From positions 1 through 64,000 of the forward strand of contig NZ_ALVZ01000221.1 in assembly GCF_000332055.1 (NCBI RefSeq): DNA of 64,000 nt. Reading direction: 5' to 3'. Shown here one piece after another: positions 6,017 through 11,386 of the stretch; position 1 is the first letter of the stretch, and each line of letters begins with the position of its first letter. The position numbers were made by a program, and so were the translations under genes. The notes beneath the pieces are model-generated. The model was not told where the DNA came from. It ran no database searches and worked only from the letters and a program-made list of their open reading frames with translations. Source of the DNA: Xenococcus sp. PCC 7305 (GTDB lineage Bacteria; Cyanobacteriota; Cyanobacteriia; Cyanobacteriales; Xenococcaceae).

Positions 6017-6112
6017 GAGGGCAGAGGGCAGAGGGCAGATGGGGGGAGTCAAGAGTCAAGAGTCAAAAGTCAAGAGTCAAAAGTCAAAAGTCAAGAGTCA
6101 AAAGTCAAAAGT
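6017..6112 (+). repeat. Two heptamer-type tandem repeat runs (GAGGGCA and AGTCAAG/AGTCAAA)
   Basis: Three GAGGGCA units at 6017-6037 are followed, from 6046 to 6112, by about nine units of AGTCAAG or AGTCAAA in mixed order. The block separates the groS control region from the accessory island that starts at 6.2 kb. The two units differ but both are seven bases long. Confidence 0.85.
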
Positions 6113-6206
6113 AATAGGGACGTGATATTCCGATCTGTTTACTGCTATTTCCACTGGAGAATTTGCCTGCAATTATTATAATAATTAAACTAGTGAAATT
6201 GAGAAA

Positions 6207-6632
6207 GTGATTGTGGAAAATATTTTTACGAAGGAAAAGATTGGTAACTTGTCGGCGGAGATTGATCGGCAAATTCAAGAGCTTGCTCAAGCATCTCCTG
6301 CTGAGAGCCAAAAAGGAGTGACAGAAGAGCAAGAGCAACTGCCTGCCAGACAAAGTCAAGCTATTGCCGAAATTACTAATGAAAATCCTACAACCTTTTT
6401 GCAGACTTTTCGGCATGTGGCCAAAAGTGATCTCTGTGAGGAAGGAGGAGTTCTTTATGGTTAGTGGCAAAAATGGTCAGATCTTAACAATGAGGATGTG
6501 ATCAACAGATTCACGGCAATTTTGGTAGGACTGGGATTTGCTGGTGGTGCTTTGGAAATTCTGTTGGTCTCGGTTGCTGTCATTGTGATTCATCTGGGAG
6601 TTAAAGCTTTTTGCGAACACTATTCCAATTAA
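6207..6632 (+). pseudogene. Small membrane protein gene interrupted by an in-frame TAG
   Basis: A GTG at 6207 opens a frame of 85 codons (MIVENIFTKEKI...) that ends at TAG 6462-6464. The same frame then continues without another stop to TAA 6630-6632, giving WQKWSDLNNEDVI and a strongly hydrophobic ~25-residue segment (ILLVSVAVIVIHLGV) near the end. Read through, the product would be 140 residues: an N-terminal helical part (EIDRQIQELAQASPAE) and a C-terminal membrane helix. The frame continuity suggests one gene with a single nonsense mutation. Two separate short genes, or leaky readthrough, cannot be excluded. It lies 53 bases before the CHAT gene and may have been its partner. I do not recognise a named family. 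Confidence 0.6.
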
Positions 6633-6685
6633 GCTACACTCAAATAAGCGTCCTCATCCTTCCCTAACTTAATTAGGAATCTGGC

Positions 6686-9600
6686 ATGGAATTAAACCTG
6701 CGTTTCCCAGAGATCGATCAAGTAATTGTTAAATTCGATGGCAACGAAACAAAAGCCCGAGAATTTATTTCTCCGATTAAGGGCGCAGCGCTCAAAGATA
6801 TTCAATGGTATCTAGAAACCTATGCCGCCCAATATACTGCTGATGTCGATGACCAAAGGGCGCAGCGGATTGCCGAGGAGTTGCCTCTATGGGGTGAGGC
6901 TTTGTTTGATGCTGTTTTCTGCGATCGCGCTGCCCAACGCTTGTTTAATGACTTTCAGGATCAAGATGAACCAGGTAAATTACTGACTATCAGCACTAGT
7001 CATCCTGCCGTCTTATCCTTGCCCTGGGAACTATTGCGGGATTCGGCAGGTACCTATTTGGTTAACGATAATCCTCGAATCTCAATCCGTCGTCGCTTTG
7101 CCGGGGCAGGTGGCGGCCGCAGATCTCTCAGGGTACAACCCAAAGATCGCTTGCACATGCTGTTTGTGATTAGTCGTCCCACAGATGCGGGTTTTATTAA
7201 TCCTCGCGGTGAGGCGATCGCAGTTTTGGAAGCTATAGAAAAAGAAGCCGCCGGCAAAATAGAAGTCGAGTTTCTCCGCCCAGCGACTTTGGATAATTTG
7301 GTAGAACGCCTAGAAGATCGGCGCCAACCTTCGGTGGATATTGTTCATTTTGATGGTCATGGTGTATTTGATCCTGATGGCAATTTGTACGAGCAAGCGA
7401 AGAAGAGCGATCGCAGACTGACGAAGGAAACCACCGCTGCTAATGCAGCCAATATGGGCTATCTGCTGTTTGAAGATCGCGAGGGCAAACAAGCCCTAAT
7501 TACAGCAGAAACCTTGGGGGATATGCTCAATCGTCAGAAGGTGGGGTTGATGGTGCTATCGGCCTGTCAATCGGCGAAAATGGCAGGAGAAGATGCCATG
7601 GGCAGTGTAGCAGCAAGATTAACCCATGCAGGCATTCCTTCGGTTTTGGCTATGACCCACTCGGTGCTGGTAACCACGGCACAGGAACTTTTTGCCAAAT
7701 TTTATCAGCGTTTGACTCGCGGGGAAGCCATGGGGGAAGCGCTGGACAATGCCCGACGACATTTGTATCTCAACCAAGAAAGGGGCGAGCGACAACGGGG
7801 CGAAACCAGAATCACTCTCAAATTGCAGGATTGGTTTTTACCTGCACTTTATCAAGCAGGAAGGGATACACCTTTGTTGACGGATAGTTTATCTGAAGCG
7901 ATAGAACCTGTCAAATGGGGCAATTTGCCGAAATTACAGGAAGCAGGCTTTTTTGGACGAAGTCGGGAATTATGGTTAATTGAAAGAGCCTTGGTAGGTA
8001 AAACCCGTCGTTTGACGATTTCTGGGTTTGGGGGGCAGGGCAAAACTTCTTTGGCCGTCGAAGCTGGGCGCTGGCTCTATCGCACGGGAATGTTCGAAAA
8101 AATCTGTTTTGTTGATTATACGGATTTTCAGAGCATCGACGCGGTAGGGTTGGCAGTTAGTATTTTGAGAACGGTTGTGGAGCAGAGTTTTATCGATGGG
8201 GATGCGGTCACGACCTATTTACAGAGGGATAAACTGCCACTGCTGATTATTTTGGATAATTTGGAAGTTCTAGAAAACGAAGGTTTGCAAGCATTGCTAG
8301 ATGTTGCCAAAAAATGGTCGGAAGCGGGTAATTGCCGAATTTTACTAACAACCAGAGCCGGAAATTTCAATCATCCAGATTACCCTACCGAAGGTAGTTT
8401 AATTCATCAGGCTTTGACTTTGCAGGGTTTGGGTTCTCCGAAATATCCAGAAGATGCCCTAGATTTTTTTCAAACCCTAATGAAATTTCCCCCGGCACCG
8501 AAATTCGATTTGCCCCAACGGAATGCGCTGATAAATTTATTCAAGCTGGTCGATTTTCATCCTCTGTCGATCAAGTTATTGGCAAGACAGTTAAAAGAAC
8601 GCCGTCCTGCGGACGTAGGGCAAGCTCTGGAGCGGTTGCTTGAGGAAACGGCTGAGGTAGAGGAAAAGGATAAAAGTTTAATTGCTTCTTTGAATTTGTC
8701 CCTAGAACGGCTCGACCCCGAAGCCCAGAAGTTTTTGCCGCGCTTGGGGATATTTCAGAGTGGAGCGATGGAAGATGTCTTGTTGAGAGTGACTGGGTTA
8801 GGGAAAACAGAGGAAGATCTTGAACTTGAAAAAGCTAAACAGTTAGCAGAAGCAATATTAAGCAACGATCCAATTCTTATTGGCCGTGCTCTCGGTTACG
8901 ATGTTCCTGACGGGGCTGAATTGACTCAAGAAGGGGTAGAGCAGCTACAACAATATGCCAGAGAAAATGTAGAGAATGCTAGAGAAGTAATTCAGATGCC
9001 CCAATCTGAATTGGCAGCAGGAGCCAACGAGGCAACTTGGGCAACCTTACGTCAAGCATTGGAAGCTACAGGGTTAATGCAGACAGAACGCCTACCAGGA
9101 GTTACTGCGCCCTATCTCAAGTTTCATCCCACCCTAGCTCCTGTGCTTCTCTCCCGTCTCACCCCGGAGGAACTAACCGCACTGACTATTCGTTATCAAG
9201 CGCAATATTATCAACTATCTCGCGATTTGTATGTCCAAGATAGAACCAATCCCCTAGATGCTCGTGCTGTAGCTCAGCGAGAATTGCCCAATTTGCTAGC
9301 TGCGGTGAACGGAGCTCTGGATGCAGGAGCAGAATCAGCAGTTGAGTTTGTTGATAAAGTAAACAAATTTCTCGACTTTTTTGGCCTCAATAAAGATCGC
9401 GCTGCCCTCACCCAACGCGCTCAAGACCTAGGTCAACCAGGTTCCTATGCCTGGTATCTCGCCCGCAGTAATAAAGGACAGCAATTGTTTAATGCTGGTC
9501 GCTACGAGGAAGCCAAGCAACTGTTTGCTGAGATATTAGCGGGATTGGGGGAAGAGGCGAGTTACGAGCGCTGCTTTACTTTGAACAGGCTAGGAAGATG

Positions 9601-10651
9601 CTTGATGGCTCAAGGTCGCTCAGCGGAAGCAGCAGAATGCTACCGTCAGGGAATCGCCACGGCAGAACAGTTACCAGTTTCTAACAGCGTGAAAAGACAG
9701 ATTGGGACATTCCAGACTGATTTGGGGGATGTGTTGACGGATATGGGTGATTACGGCCAGGCTAGAATTGCCTACCAGGAATCACTAGCGATCGCAAAAG
9801 AACTTGGTGACACCAGGCAAAAAGCAGTAGCAAACATACAACTGGGAACTCTAGCCCTAGTGCAAGGCAAATTAGCAGAAGCAGCAAAAGCCTATCAAGA
9901 AGCACTAAAGATATTCCAGGGACTCAATGAACCAGCATCCGAAGCAACAGTTTGGCATCAAATGGGTATGGTGCACGAAGAAGCCCAACAGTGGGAAGCG
10001 GCGGAACAAGCATACCGAGAATCGGCAAAAATTAAAGAATACCAAGGTAATCTAGAGGGTGCTGCCCAGACTTGGAATCAATTAGCTATGGTCAATGAAA
10101 ATGCTGGCAGACTGAAAGAAGCAGAGACCTGGTATCGCAAAACCTTAGAGCATTGTGAAGCTTTACCAGATAAAGGAGCTAAAGTATTCAACAACCTCGC
10201 TGATTTGCTACAAAACCAGCGCGATCGCCTGCCCGAAGCACGACAATTAGCAGAAGAAGGACTGGCGATCAAAAAAACCTTAGATCCGGCAGCGGCTGAG
10301 ATTTGGAAAACCTATGGACTTTTAGCAGCAATTGCAGATAAGCAGGGCGATACCGACCAAGCTAGAGAATATCGTCGTCTATCTCGCCAAGAATACAATC
10401 AGTTCGCGGGAATGCCCTATCAATTGCAGCAATACGAGAATTTGATTGCAGGAGTAGTTGCTGCGGTGGATGATGCAGAAGTGAGGCAACAGTTGGAAGA
10501 TGATATGGATCAATTACCAGAAGTTTGGGCCAGTCTGGTCACTGCGATCCGTGCCATCTTAGAGGGAGAACGAGATGAAGAACTGCTATGCGAACCTTTG
10601 GATTATAAGGATGCAGCGATTGTCGGTGCTATCCTGCGGAGGATTGGGTAG
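6686..10651 (+). CDS. CHAT protease - STAND (NB-ARC-like) NTPase - TPR signalling protein
   Basis: This 1321-residue multidomain protein joins three modules. Residues ~95-390 are a CHAT (caspase HetF-associated with TPRs) domain with the catalytic His in VHFDGHG (His225) and Cys in LSACQSAK (Cys294). Residues ~420-760 are a STAND/NB-ARC-like NTPase with Walker A GFGGQGKT (447-454), Walker B LLIILDN (Asp524) and a sensor-like RILLTTR (551-557). From about residue 930 to 1230 there are tetratricopeptide repeats (for example AECYRQGIATAEQL, AKAYQEALKIFQGL). Such proteins are thought to be ligand-triggered switches that oligomerize and activate the protease in defence or cell-death responses. That role is an inference here. 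A damaged membrane-protein gene precedes it and a degraded toxin-antitoxin pair follows it. Confidence 0.88.
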   Translation: MELNLRFPEIDQVIVKFDGNETKAREFISPIKGAALKDIQWYLETYAAQYTADVDDQRAQRIAEELPLWGEALFDAVFCDRAAQRLFNDFQDQDEPGKLLTISTSHPAVLSLPWELLRDSAGTYLVNDNPRISIRRRFAGAGGGRRSLRVQPKDRLHMLFVISRPTDAGFINPRGEAIAVLEAIEKEAAGKIEVEFLRPATLDNLVERLEDRRQPSVDIVHFDGHGVFDPDGNLYEQAKKSDRRLTKETTAANAANMGYLLFEDREGKQALITAETLGDMLNRQKVGLMVLSACQSAKMAGEDAMGSVAARLTHAGIPSVLAMTHSVLVTTAQELFAKFYQRLTRGEAMGEALDNARRHLYLNQERGERQRGETRITLKLQDWFLPALYQAGRDTPLLTDSLSEAIEPVKWGNLPKLQEAGFFGRSRELWLIERALVGKTRRLTISGFGGQGKTSLAVEAGRWLYRTGMFEKICFVDYTDFQSIDAVGLAVSILRTVVEQSFIDGDAVTTYLQRDKLPLLIILDNLEVLENEGLQALLDVAKKWSEAGNCRILLTTRAGNFNHPDYPTEGSLIHQALTLQGLGSPKYPEDALDFFQTLMKFPPAPKFDLPQRNALINLFKLVDFHPLSIKLLARQLKERRPADVGQALERLLEETAEVEEKDKSLIASLNLSLERLDPEAQKFLPRLGIFQSGAMEDVLLRVTGLGKTEEDLELEKAKQLAEAILSNDPILIGRALGYDVPDGAELTQEGVEQLQQYARENVENAREVIQMPQSELAAGANEATWATLRQALEATGLMQTERLPGVTAPYLKFHPTLAPVLLSRLTPEELTALTIRYQAQYYQLSRDLYVQDRTNPLDARAVAQRELPNLLAAVNGALDAGAESAVEFVDKVNKFLDFFGLNKDRAALTQRAQDLGQPGSYAWYLARSNKGQQLFNAGRYEEAKQLFAEILAGLGEEASYERCFTLNRLGRCLMAQGRSAEAAECYRQGIATAEQLPVSNSVKRQIGTFQTDLGDVLTDMGDYGQARIAYQESLAIAKELGDTRQKAVANIQLGTLALVQGKLAEAAKAYQEALKIFQGLNEPASEATVWHQMGMVHEEAQQWEAAEQAYRESAKIKEYQGNLEGAAQTWNQLAMVNENAGRLKEAETWYRKTLEHCEALPDKGAKVFNNLADLLQNQRDRLPEARQLAEEGLAIKKTLDPAAAEIWKTYGLLAAIADKQGDTDQAREYRRLSRQEYNQFAGMPYQLQQYENLIAGVVAAVDDAEVRQQLEDDMDQLPEVWASLVTAIRAILEGERDEELLCEPLDYKDAAIVGAILRRIG

Positions 10652-10748: not shown

Positions 10749-10988
10749 ATGCAACCTGCCTTACATTTAACAACTAAAGTTTTACCAGGAAACAAAATCG
10801 AAATTGAAATTCCTGAAGGATCAATTGGCGACACAGTCGATGTATTTGTTGTGATGCCGGAAAAACCGCAACAGAAGAAGCAATCAGTCTTAGAATTAAT
10901 CGAAGAAAGCCGCAGTAAACATGCTCGTAGAAGTGCAGAAGATATAGATCGACAACTGCAAGAGGAACGGGATTCATGGGACAGCTAG
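10749..10988 (+). CDS. Putative antitoxin of a PIN-type toxin-antitoxin pair
   Basis: This 79-residue protein has an N-terminal beta-strand part (LHLTTKVLPGNKIEIEIPEG) and a charged helical C-terminus (IEESRSKHARRSAEDIDRQL). That pattern is frequent in small cyanobacterial antitoxins paired with PIN-domain toxins. The last 13 bases overlap the start of the PIN gene, which indicates translational coupling. The antitoxin role is inferred from size, composition and this overlap. It appears intact although its partner is truncated. Confidence 0.65.
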   Translation: MQPALHLTTKVLPGNKIEIEIPEGSIGDTVDVFVVMPEKPQQKKQSVLELIEESRSKHARRSAEDIDRQLQEERDSWDS

Positions 10989-11386
10989 TAATTCCATCTG
11001 GCAGCAAAGTTTATGTGGATACATCGGTTATCATCTACACTTTTGAGGAAAATATAGACTATTTTGACCTTCTAAGACCTTTATGGGAAAAATTTCAAGA
11101 GCAAGAGATCGAACTTATTAGCAGTGATTTAGTATTAATGGAAGTTTTAGTTTTGCCTTTGCGGAATAATAACAAGCCTTTAATTTCTGACTACGAACAA
11201 TTGTTGCTAAATTCAGCAATGCAGCTTGTTCCTATTAATCAATCTGTTTTACGACAAGCATCTAATCTACGGGCAAATACTAACCTCAAATCCCCGTTAC
11301 CCGTTTCCTGTTCCCTGTTCCCTATTCCCTGTTCCCTAAAGGAAGATCTTCTGTATCTCACTAATTCGAGAAGGGCTATAATGTGA
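10976..11386 (+). pseudogene. VapC-like PIN-domain toxin, C-terminally truncated by a heptamer repeat
   Basis: The first ~108 residues are a PIN-domain ribonuclease: YVDTSVIIYTFE carries the first catalytic Asp, and the SSDLVLMEVLVLPLR segment carries the conserved Glu. At LRANTNLKSP, where family members continue with a DAIHAA-type motif holding the third acidic residue, the frame runs into tandem TTCCCTG heptamers and then unrelated codons to residue 136. The catalytic C-terminal part is missing, so the toxin is probably inactive. It overlaps the antitoxin gene by 13 bases. I count it as a broken gene, although the remaining frame could still be translated. Confidence 0.7.
11304..11338 (+). 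repeat. TTCCCTG heptamer tandem repeat inside the PIN toxin frame
   Basis: Five tandem seven-base units (TTTCCTG, TTCCCTG, TTCCCTA, TTCCCTG, TTCCCTA) lie exactly where PIN-domain homology stops. Because 35 bases is not a multiple of three, the array shifts the frame. It marks the truncation point of the toxin gene. Confidence 0.85.

What the first reader, a model, noticed from the sequence alone, without database searches (positions are those of the whole stretch)
6686..10651. Intact CHAT protease fused to a STAND NTPase and TPR repeats: candidate immune or suicide effector
The protein keeps both CHAT catalytic residues (His225 and Cys294), a complete Walker A (GFGGQGKT) and Walker B, and C-terminal TPRs. 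From established knowledge of STAND proteins, such a layout acts as a ligand-sensing switch that activates a protease. In cyanobacteria, CHAT and caspase-like proteins are linked to cell death and anti-phage responses. The ligand and the protease target are unknown. No adjacent intact substrate gene is visible, which makes this arrangement worth studying.
Basis: partly seen in the sequence, partly recalled or inferred. Interest (0 to 1): 0.72.

Follow-up and report, generated by a model that had tools for sequence, protein, structure and literature searches.

The report
CHAT protease with broken membrane partner
A cyanobacterial gene encodes an intact caspase-like protease wired to an infection-sensor-type switch, and its cyanobacterial relatives are usually found beside an undescribed small, membrane-seeking protein that is probably what the protease acts on; in this genome that second gene is present but cut short by a premature stop.

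Summary
Window 6686-10651 is an intact 1321-aa protein with CHAT protease (His225 and Cys294 invariant in relatives), STAND-type NTPase and TPR repeats. Directly upstream (about 6213-6632, same strand) lies a ~140-aa gene cut by one in-frame TAG (6462-6464), before its hydrophobic C-terminus. Intact homologues sit next to the CHAT gene in 20 of 35 close relatives, both operonic and convergent. In 389 other genomes of the class, 9 of 10 with a close CHAT relative also have the partner, within 1.2 kb. The window copy is the only one of the 14 found there with an internal stop. A second partner subfamily accompanies ~30%-identical CHAT-STAND-TPR proteins: 11 of 20 sampled loci, about 0.04 expected by chance, plus both copies found on plasmids. 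[quoted passage not shown] Pfam and NCBIfam do not know the partner. Best model: sensor-triggered CHAT cleavage releases or activates the partner's hydrophobic segment to damage the membrane. The pairing is well supported; cleavage, membrane damage and phage defence are inferred. Here the system looks disarmed: protease intact, partner truncated.

The parts
6686..10651 (+). CHAT-STAND-TPR protein, 1321 aa, intact
   Evidence: the ORF listing, Pfam, 20-sequence alignment A2
6899..7783 (+). CHAT protease domain (aa 72-366); catalytic His225 codon at 7358-7360, Cys294 codon at 7565-7567
   Evidence: Pfam PF12770 E 1.4e-31; both residues invariant in A2 and in divergent A6
7886..8800 (+). Linker plus STAND-type NTPase (aa 401-705); Walker A GFGGQGKT at 8024-8047, Walker B-like LLIILDNLE at about 8240-8266
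   Evidence: PDB 6mfv match 407-685 E 5.5e-5; invariant G447, G449, G450, G452, K453, T454, D524; Pfam NB-ARC/NACHT below cut-off
8801..9034 (+). Insertion (aa 706-783) present in few relatives (e.g. L011, L022, L042)
   Evidence: A2 alignment; 3 of 18 relatives cover it, mean identity 0.23
9476..10390 (+). TPR array (about aa 931-1235), probable sensor
   Evidence: Pfam TPR_12; PADLOC TPR PDLC01169 E 3.4e-12
6213..6632 (+). Broken partner gene (pseudogene-like); ends 53 bp before the CHAT start codon
   Evidence: Frame translation; tblastn to intact homologues beside CHAT genes in 20 loci; profile hit E 1.6e-55 with one internal TAG
6462..6464 (+). In-frame TAG stop, at a codon that is Gln in 24 of 24 intact homologues; removes the whole hydrophobic C-terminus
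6465..6632 (+). 3' half of the partner, still readable in frame, with the C-terminal hydrophobic segment (GLGFAGGALEILLVSVAVIVIHLGVKAFCEHYSN)
   Evidence: 87.9-bit match to the A1 profile; maximal 19-residue Kyte-Doolittle mean 2.45

Best explanation
This is the large gene of a two-gene protease-effector system. Shown by sequence: an N-terminal CHAT protease with intact His/Cys, a STAND-type NTPase switch and a TPR array, encoded next to a ~140-aa partner. The partner has an N-terminal helical part, a low-confidence (probably flexible) linker, a conserved Cys-containing helix and a C-terminal hydrophobic helix ending in FCE. Inferred: the TPRs sense an infection or stress cue; nucleotide exchange lets the protein oligomerise; the CHAT domain becomes active and cuts the partner, most likely in or near the linker; the freed C-terminal part then permeabilises the membrane and stops or kills the cell. 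In this genome the partner is truncated by a stop codon before its hydrophobic part, so the system is probably disarmed although the protease gene is intact.
For: Partner next to CHAT in 20 of 35 close-relative loci, both upstream on the same strand (gaps 2 to 665 bp) and convergent downstream. Independent genome sample: 9 of 10 other genomes with a CHAT at E<=1e-100 also carry the partner, always within 1.2 kb; partner in 13 of 389, Fisher p 1.4e-14, not corrected for phylogeny. CHAT and partner distances correlate, r 0.866, 0 of 5000 permutations. Divergent CHAT-STAND-TPRs carry a homologous partner subfamily B (hhalign probability 95.5%, E 1.6e-8): 11 of 20 sampled B loci, against about 0.04 expected, and both B copies found in 72,556 plasmid records. 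B also sits about 20 bp from a caspase gene (L153, Pfam E 2.8e-18) and matches PADLOC PDC-M35B (E 1.3e-5), whose companion model PDC-M35A hits HtrA/trypsin-like proteases. The same small family beside three unrelated protease types argues that it is a substrate or effector. C75, G129 and C134 are invariant in 60 partner sequences. Predicted fold: six helices, linker at pLDDT below 50, C-terminal helix 112-138, hydropathy up to 2.6.
Against: No proteolysis, membrane activity or phage phenotype is shown. A third, weakly related group (~130 aa, about one per genome in many cyanobacteria) has the same layout and no full CHAT neighbour in 10 sampled loci, so the fold need not be toxic. The gammaproteobacterial and planctomycete CHAT relatives lack an adjacent partner, apart from a remnant in L022. 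9 of 20 sampled B loci have no CHAT within reach. The partner model is of medium quality (pLDDT 75, pTM 0.48) and has no fold match.
Confidence: 0.5

Rival explanations
1. The partner is a membrane anchor or adaptor, not a toxin: its hydrophobic helix tethers the CHAT-STAND-TPR complex to a membrane where sensing or proteolysis of other targets occurs.
For: One C-terminal hydrophobic helix with a helical N-terminal part fits an anchor; a related, apparently core cyanobacterial group exists without CHAT neighbours.
Against: It pairs with CHAT, caspase and (via PDC-M35) trypsin-like proteases, which suits a shared substrate or effector at least as well as an anchor; the invariant Cys, Gly and Cys residues are more than a simple anchor needs.
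Confidence: 0.25
2. The partner is an inhibitor (antitoxin-like) that holds the protease inactive.
For: Small adjacent gene, often directly upstream on the same strand.
Against: In this genome the partner is truncated while the protease keeps all its catalytic residues, which would be harmful if the partner were the brake, unless the N-terminal fragment of about 83 residues still inhibits; STAND proteins normally autoinhibit (established knowledge).
Confidence: 0.1
3. The stop codon is a sequencing or assembly error, or is read through, and the system here is intact and functional. (This bears on the state of the window's copy, not on the mechanism, so its confidence is apart from the others.)
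For: A single codon is affected; the 3' half is at least as conserved as the 5' half.
Against: TAG also ends the CHAT gene itself, so it serves as a stop in this genome; no other assembly of the strain was available; a recent nonsense mutation predicts the same pattern; other partner copies elsewhere also carry stops.
Confidence: 0.25
4. The protein is a signalling or developmental protease like HetF rather than a defence or suicide effector.
For: HetF, a cyanobacterial CHAT protein, acts in cell division and heterocyst differentiation (PMC8406250, abstract); a different Nostoc CHAT gene, all2170, was tied to loss of nitrogen fixation in a phage-resistant strain (PMC10811720).
Against: Patchy distribution: no close copy in 59 relatives, only ~30% identical CHATs; two divergent pairs lie on a conjugative and a mobilizable plasmid.
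Confidence: 0.2

Closest known systems
Csx29 (TPR-CHAT) with Csx30, type III-E CRISPR (Craspase)
   Same: A TPR-coupled CHAT protease that cuts a protein encoded in the same locus once a sensor fires; His/Cys dyad (PMC10028731)
   Different: Csx29 is switched on by Cas7-11 and target RNA; here CHAT is N-terminal, the switch is a fused STAND NTPase, and no Cas7-11-like gene was seen in the window. The partner is a small hydrophobic-tailed protein, not Csx30.
Nuclease-protease pairs of AVAST/Hachiman and caspase-nuclease (canu) loci
   Same: A defence protease activates an effector encoded beside it; the same effector family is reused with different proteases (PMC12799240)
   Different: That effector is an MBL-type pro-nuclease; ours is a small helical protein with a hydrophobic C-terminus.
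EACC1-caspase two-gene conflict system (Kaur et al. 2020, System 4)
   Same: Small one-TM-helix protein gene 5' to a caspase-superfamily gene (PMC7159879)
   Different: The CHAT region reaches only 16.2 bits against a cut-off of 140 for NCBIfam caspase_w_EACC1; no partner sequence matched a named family; EACC1 systems are mainly actinobacterial.
PADLOC candidate PDC-M35
   Same: PDC-M35B is homologous to partner subfamily B (E 1.3e-5 and 3.9e-4)
   Different: PDC-M35A is a 216-position model that hits HtrA/trypsin-like proteases, not CHAT; the subfamily A partner tested (L041) does not match PDC-M35B.
Bacterial gasdermin systems
   Same: A protease with a neighbouring membrane-damaging substrate (idea only; from own knowledge)
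   Different: The partner is ~140 aa and predicted all-helical, with no gasdermin match in Pfam, NCBIfam or PDB.

Membership tests
CHAT protease family (PF12770) | Profile match above curated cut-off | tested here: met
   110.4 bits against 24
CHAT protease family (PF12770) | Catalytic His and Cys | tested here: met
   H225 and C294 invariant in 20 and 16 sequences
CHAT protease family (PF12770) | Proteolytic activity | not testable with these tools
   needs biochemistry
STAND NTPase | Walker A and Walker B | tested here: met
   GFGGQGKT 447-454, LLIILDNLE 519-527, conserved in A2
STAND NTPase | Match to a STAND family or structure | tested here: inconclusive
   Pfam NB-ARC/NACHT below cut-off; phmmer to TPR-sensor NTPase 6mfv E 5.5e-5
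TPR protein | TPR profile above cut-off | tested here: met
   TPR_12 109.5 bits against 30.1
Csx29/Craspase | Encoded with Cas7-11 and Csx30 | tested here: not met
   no ORF of that kind or size among the window's ORFs, read by eye
EACC1-caspase system | EACC1-associated caspase profile | tested here: not met
   16.2 bits against cut-off 140
PDC-M35 (PADLOC) | PDC-M35B match of the small gene | tested here: inconclusive
   met for subfamily B (E 1.3e-5, 3.9e-4); no match for the subfamily A relative L041, the window's kind
PDC-M35 (PADLOC) | Trypsin-like PDC-M35A as partner | tested here: not met
   the partner here is a CHAT-STAND-TPR with no PDC-M35A match
Anti-phage defence system | Protects against phage | not testable with these tools
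   needs infection assays

The most novel reading that the evidence does not exclude
The small partner defines an undescribed family of protease-activated membrane effectors, reused by CHAT-STAND-TPR, caspase and trypsin-type systems, and so a bacterial counterpart in kind (not in fold) of the caspase-gasdermin pair.
Probability: 0.35. Interest if true: 0.85.

Novelty: new variant of a known kind. Interest (0 to 1): 0.62.

Why it matters
CHAT-STAND-TPR proteins are found in many cyanobacteria, and I found no report of what they cut. A conserved neighbouring gene gives them a specific candidate substrate or effector that can be tested in one co-expression experiment. Reuse of the same small family with other protease types would make it a general module of bacterial cell death or defence. 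The window adds a natural case with the partner truncated and the protease kept, which bears on whether the partner is a brake or a weapon.

Tried and rejected
Partner in Pfam, NCBIfam, PHROGs and PDB by sequence: nothing significant; a Pyrin chain at E 0.73 was rejected as chance. First AlphaFold run on 20 close sequences: pLDDT 53, not used. Fold comparison of the better model: best Foldseek E 8.2 and best VIA Z 4.3, no usable match. Viral contigs: no relative of the partner. Plasmids with subfamily A: none. Phages with subfamily B: none. Upstream small genes beside two other plasmid-borne CHAT genes (L185, L186) are not partner homologues. Partner in the window's own 59 relatives: no match to the 3' half. 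No close paralogue of the CHAT protein in the own genome. The literature library gave no description of this pair or of PDC-M35; most subscription papers and bioRxiv are not held.

Full report
1. Observation. The ORF at 6686-10651 is intact and 1321 aa long. Pfam places CHAT at 72-366 and TPRs at about 925-1230, both far above the curated cut-offs; NB-ARC and NACHT are seen only below cut-off. The NTPase part has GFGGQGKT, LLIILDNLE and a conserved HPLS motif, and matches the TPR-sensor NTPase PH0952 (6mfv) over 407-685 at E 5.5e-5. In a 20-member alignment at 31-66% identity His225, Cys294, the Walker A residues and Asp524 are invariant; His225 and Cys294 stay invariant in a more divergent set of 16.

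2. The neighbour. Frame translation of 6051-6686 shows, ending 53 bp before the CHAT start, an open frame interrupted by one TAG at 6462-6464. A scan of bacterial and archaeal genomes with CHAT+STAND returned 50 loci, 35 of them (L011-L045) close relatives. tblastn of the interrupted gene found intact homologues beside the CHAT gene in 20 of the 35, at 38-59% identity. In Leptolyngbya, Scytonema, Brasilonema, Tolypothrix campylonemoides, a Calothrix MAG and Pseudanabaena the partner is upstream on the same strand, with gaps from 2 to 665 bp; in the Nostoc-like loci it is downstream and convergent. A link that survives such rearrangement is unlikely to be passive.

3. Independent sample. In 389 other genomes of the class the partner profile hits 13, none with an internal stop, while the window's copy has one TAG. 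A strict CHAT search (E<=1e-100) hits 10 of the same 389; 9 of these have the partner, always within 1.2 kb. Fisher p is 1.4e-14, not corrected for phylogeny. Pairwise distances of CHAT and partner correlate at r 0.866. The stop lies at a codon that is Gln in 24 of 24 homologues, and the 3' half is at least as conserved as the 5' half, so the lesion is recent, an error, or read through.

4. A wider family. Relatives of the window's genome lack a close copy, but some carry CHAT-STAND-TPRs of about 30% identity. Six of nine such loci fetched, and L104 from another genome, hold a small gene with the same C-terminal signature, homologous to the first partner family by profile comparison. This subfamily B occurs in some 60 of 390 genomes at E below 1e-20. 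Of 20 B loci fetched across the list, 11 have a CHAT-STAND-TPR within 8 kb. The same genomes hold only 14 such CHAT genes in about 126 Mb, so about 0.04 would be expected by chance. One further B copy lies about 20 bp from a caspase gene, and one beside a TPR fragment at a contig end. A search of 72,556 plasmid records found two B copies, both beside a CHAT-STAND-TPR gene (split into two annotated genes in one case), on a conjugative and a mobilizable plasmid. B proteins match PADLOC's phage-defence candidate PDC-M35B; the companion model PDC-M35A hits HtrA-like proteases. That PDC-M35A is a trypsin-like protease is my reading of those hits.

5. What the partner looks like. Sixty sequences share three invariant positions, C75, G129 and C134. 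AlphaFold gives six helices, a low-confidence stretch at 30-39 and a long C-terminal helix 112-138 (pLDDT 75, pTM 0.48); hydropathy peaks at 2.6 there. No known fold or family was found. A third group of ~130-aa proteins, about one per genome in many cyanobacteria, is weakly related and had no full CHAT neighbour in 10 loci; this is the main reason not to call the family toxic outright.

6. Mechanism. From the anatomy: TPR sensing, STAND switching, CHAT activation, cleavage of the partner near its linker, membrane damage by the C-terminal part. Only the anatomy and the genetic linkage are shown; the rest is inference. Precedents for a defence protease that cuts a protein encoded beside it are Csx29-Csx30 (PMC10028731) and the nuclease-protease pairs (PMC12799240). 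The natural truncation of the partner with a kept protease speaks against a simple antitoxin role, with the caveat that an N-terminal fragment of about 83 residues may still be made.

7. Limits. The co-occurrence counts are not corrected for relatedness. Flanks in the first scan were 4 kb, and several loci are cut by contig ends, so 20 of 35 is a lower bound. Gammaproteobacterial and planctomycete relatives seem to lack an adjacent partner. Whether the TAG is real in the strain could not be checked.

Noticed in passing
window 10749-11386: A small VapB-like ORF (10749-10988) followed by a PIN-domain ORF (10976-11386, Pfam PIN 45 bits over positions 1-90 of 120) whose C-terminus runs into repeat-like sequence (SPLPVSCSLFPIPCSL); probably a truncated VapC-type toxin.
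   Followed up: partly
L167-L176, e.g. L168:8079-8465, L172:7504-7881: A ~130-aa protein of unknown function, about one per genome in many cyanobacteria, weakly homologous to the CHAT partner (invariant Cys/Gly/Cys), absent from Pfam and NCBIfam and not near full CHAT genes.
   Followed up: partly
L149:8805-11682, L150:11078-14153, L152:3665-6674: In three B-partner loci without CHAT, a two-gene pair lies nearby: a ~447-aa P-loop NTPase and a 524-589-aa protein (TPR-containing in L152). Possible further partner system.
   Followed up: no
G381, G422, G092, G343, G190, G238: Several B-partner copies in other genomes contain one or more stop codons, so loss of the partner seems to recur.
   Followed up: no
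window 6051-6120: Short tandem repeats (translated as KSQESKVKSQKSKVKSQ) just upstream of the broken partner gene.
   Followed up: no
L035:65-682, L038:3086-3772, L045:1853-2482: Three gammaproteobacterial CHAT relatives without the partner share a different ~205-aa upstream neighbour of unknown function.
   Followed up: no
G030:C51:1417-1878 (L184): A PDC-M35B-like small protein (Cys plus hydrophobic C-terminus, E 1.8e-4) in a cyanobacterium, with no CHAT, caspase or trypsin-like gene recognised beside it by eye.
   Followed up: partly
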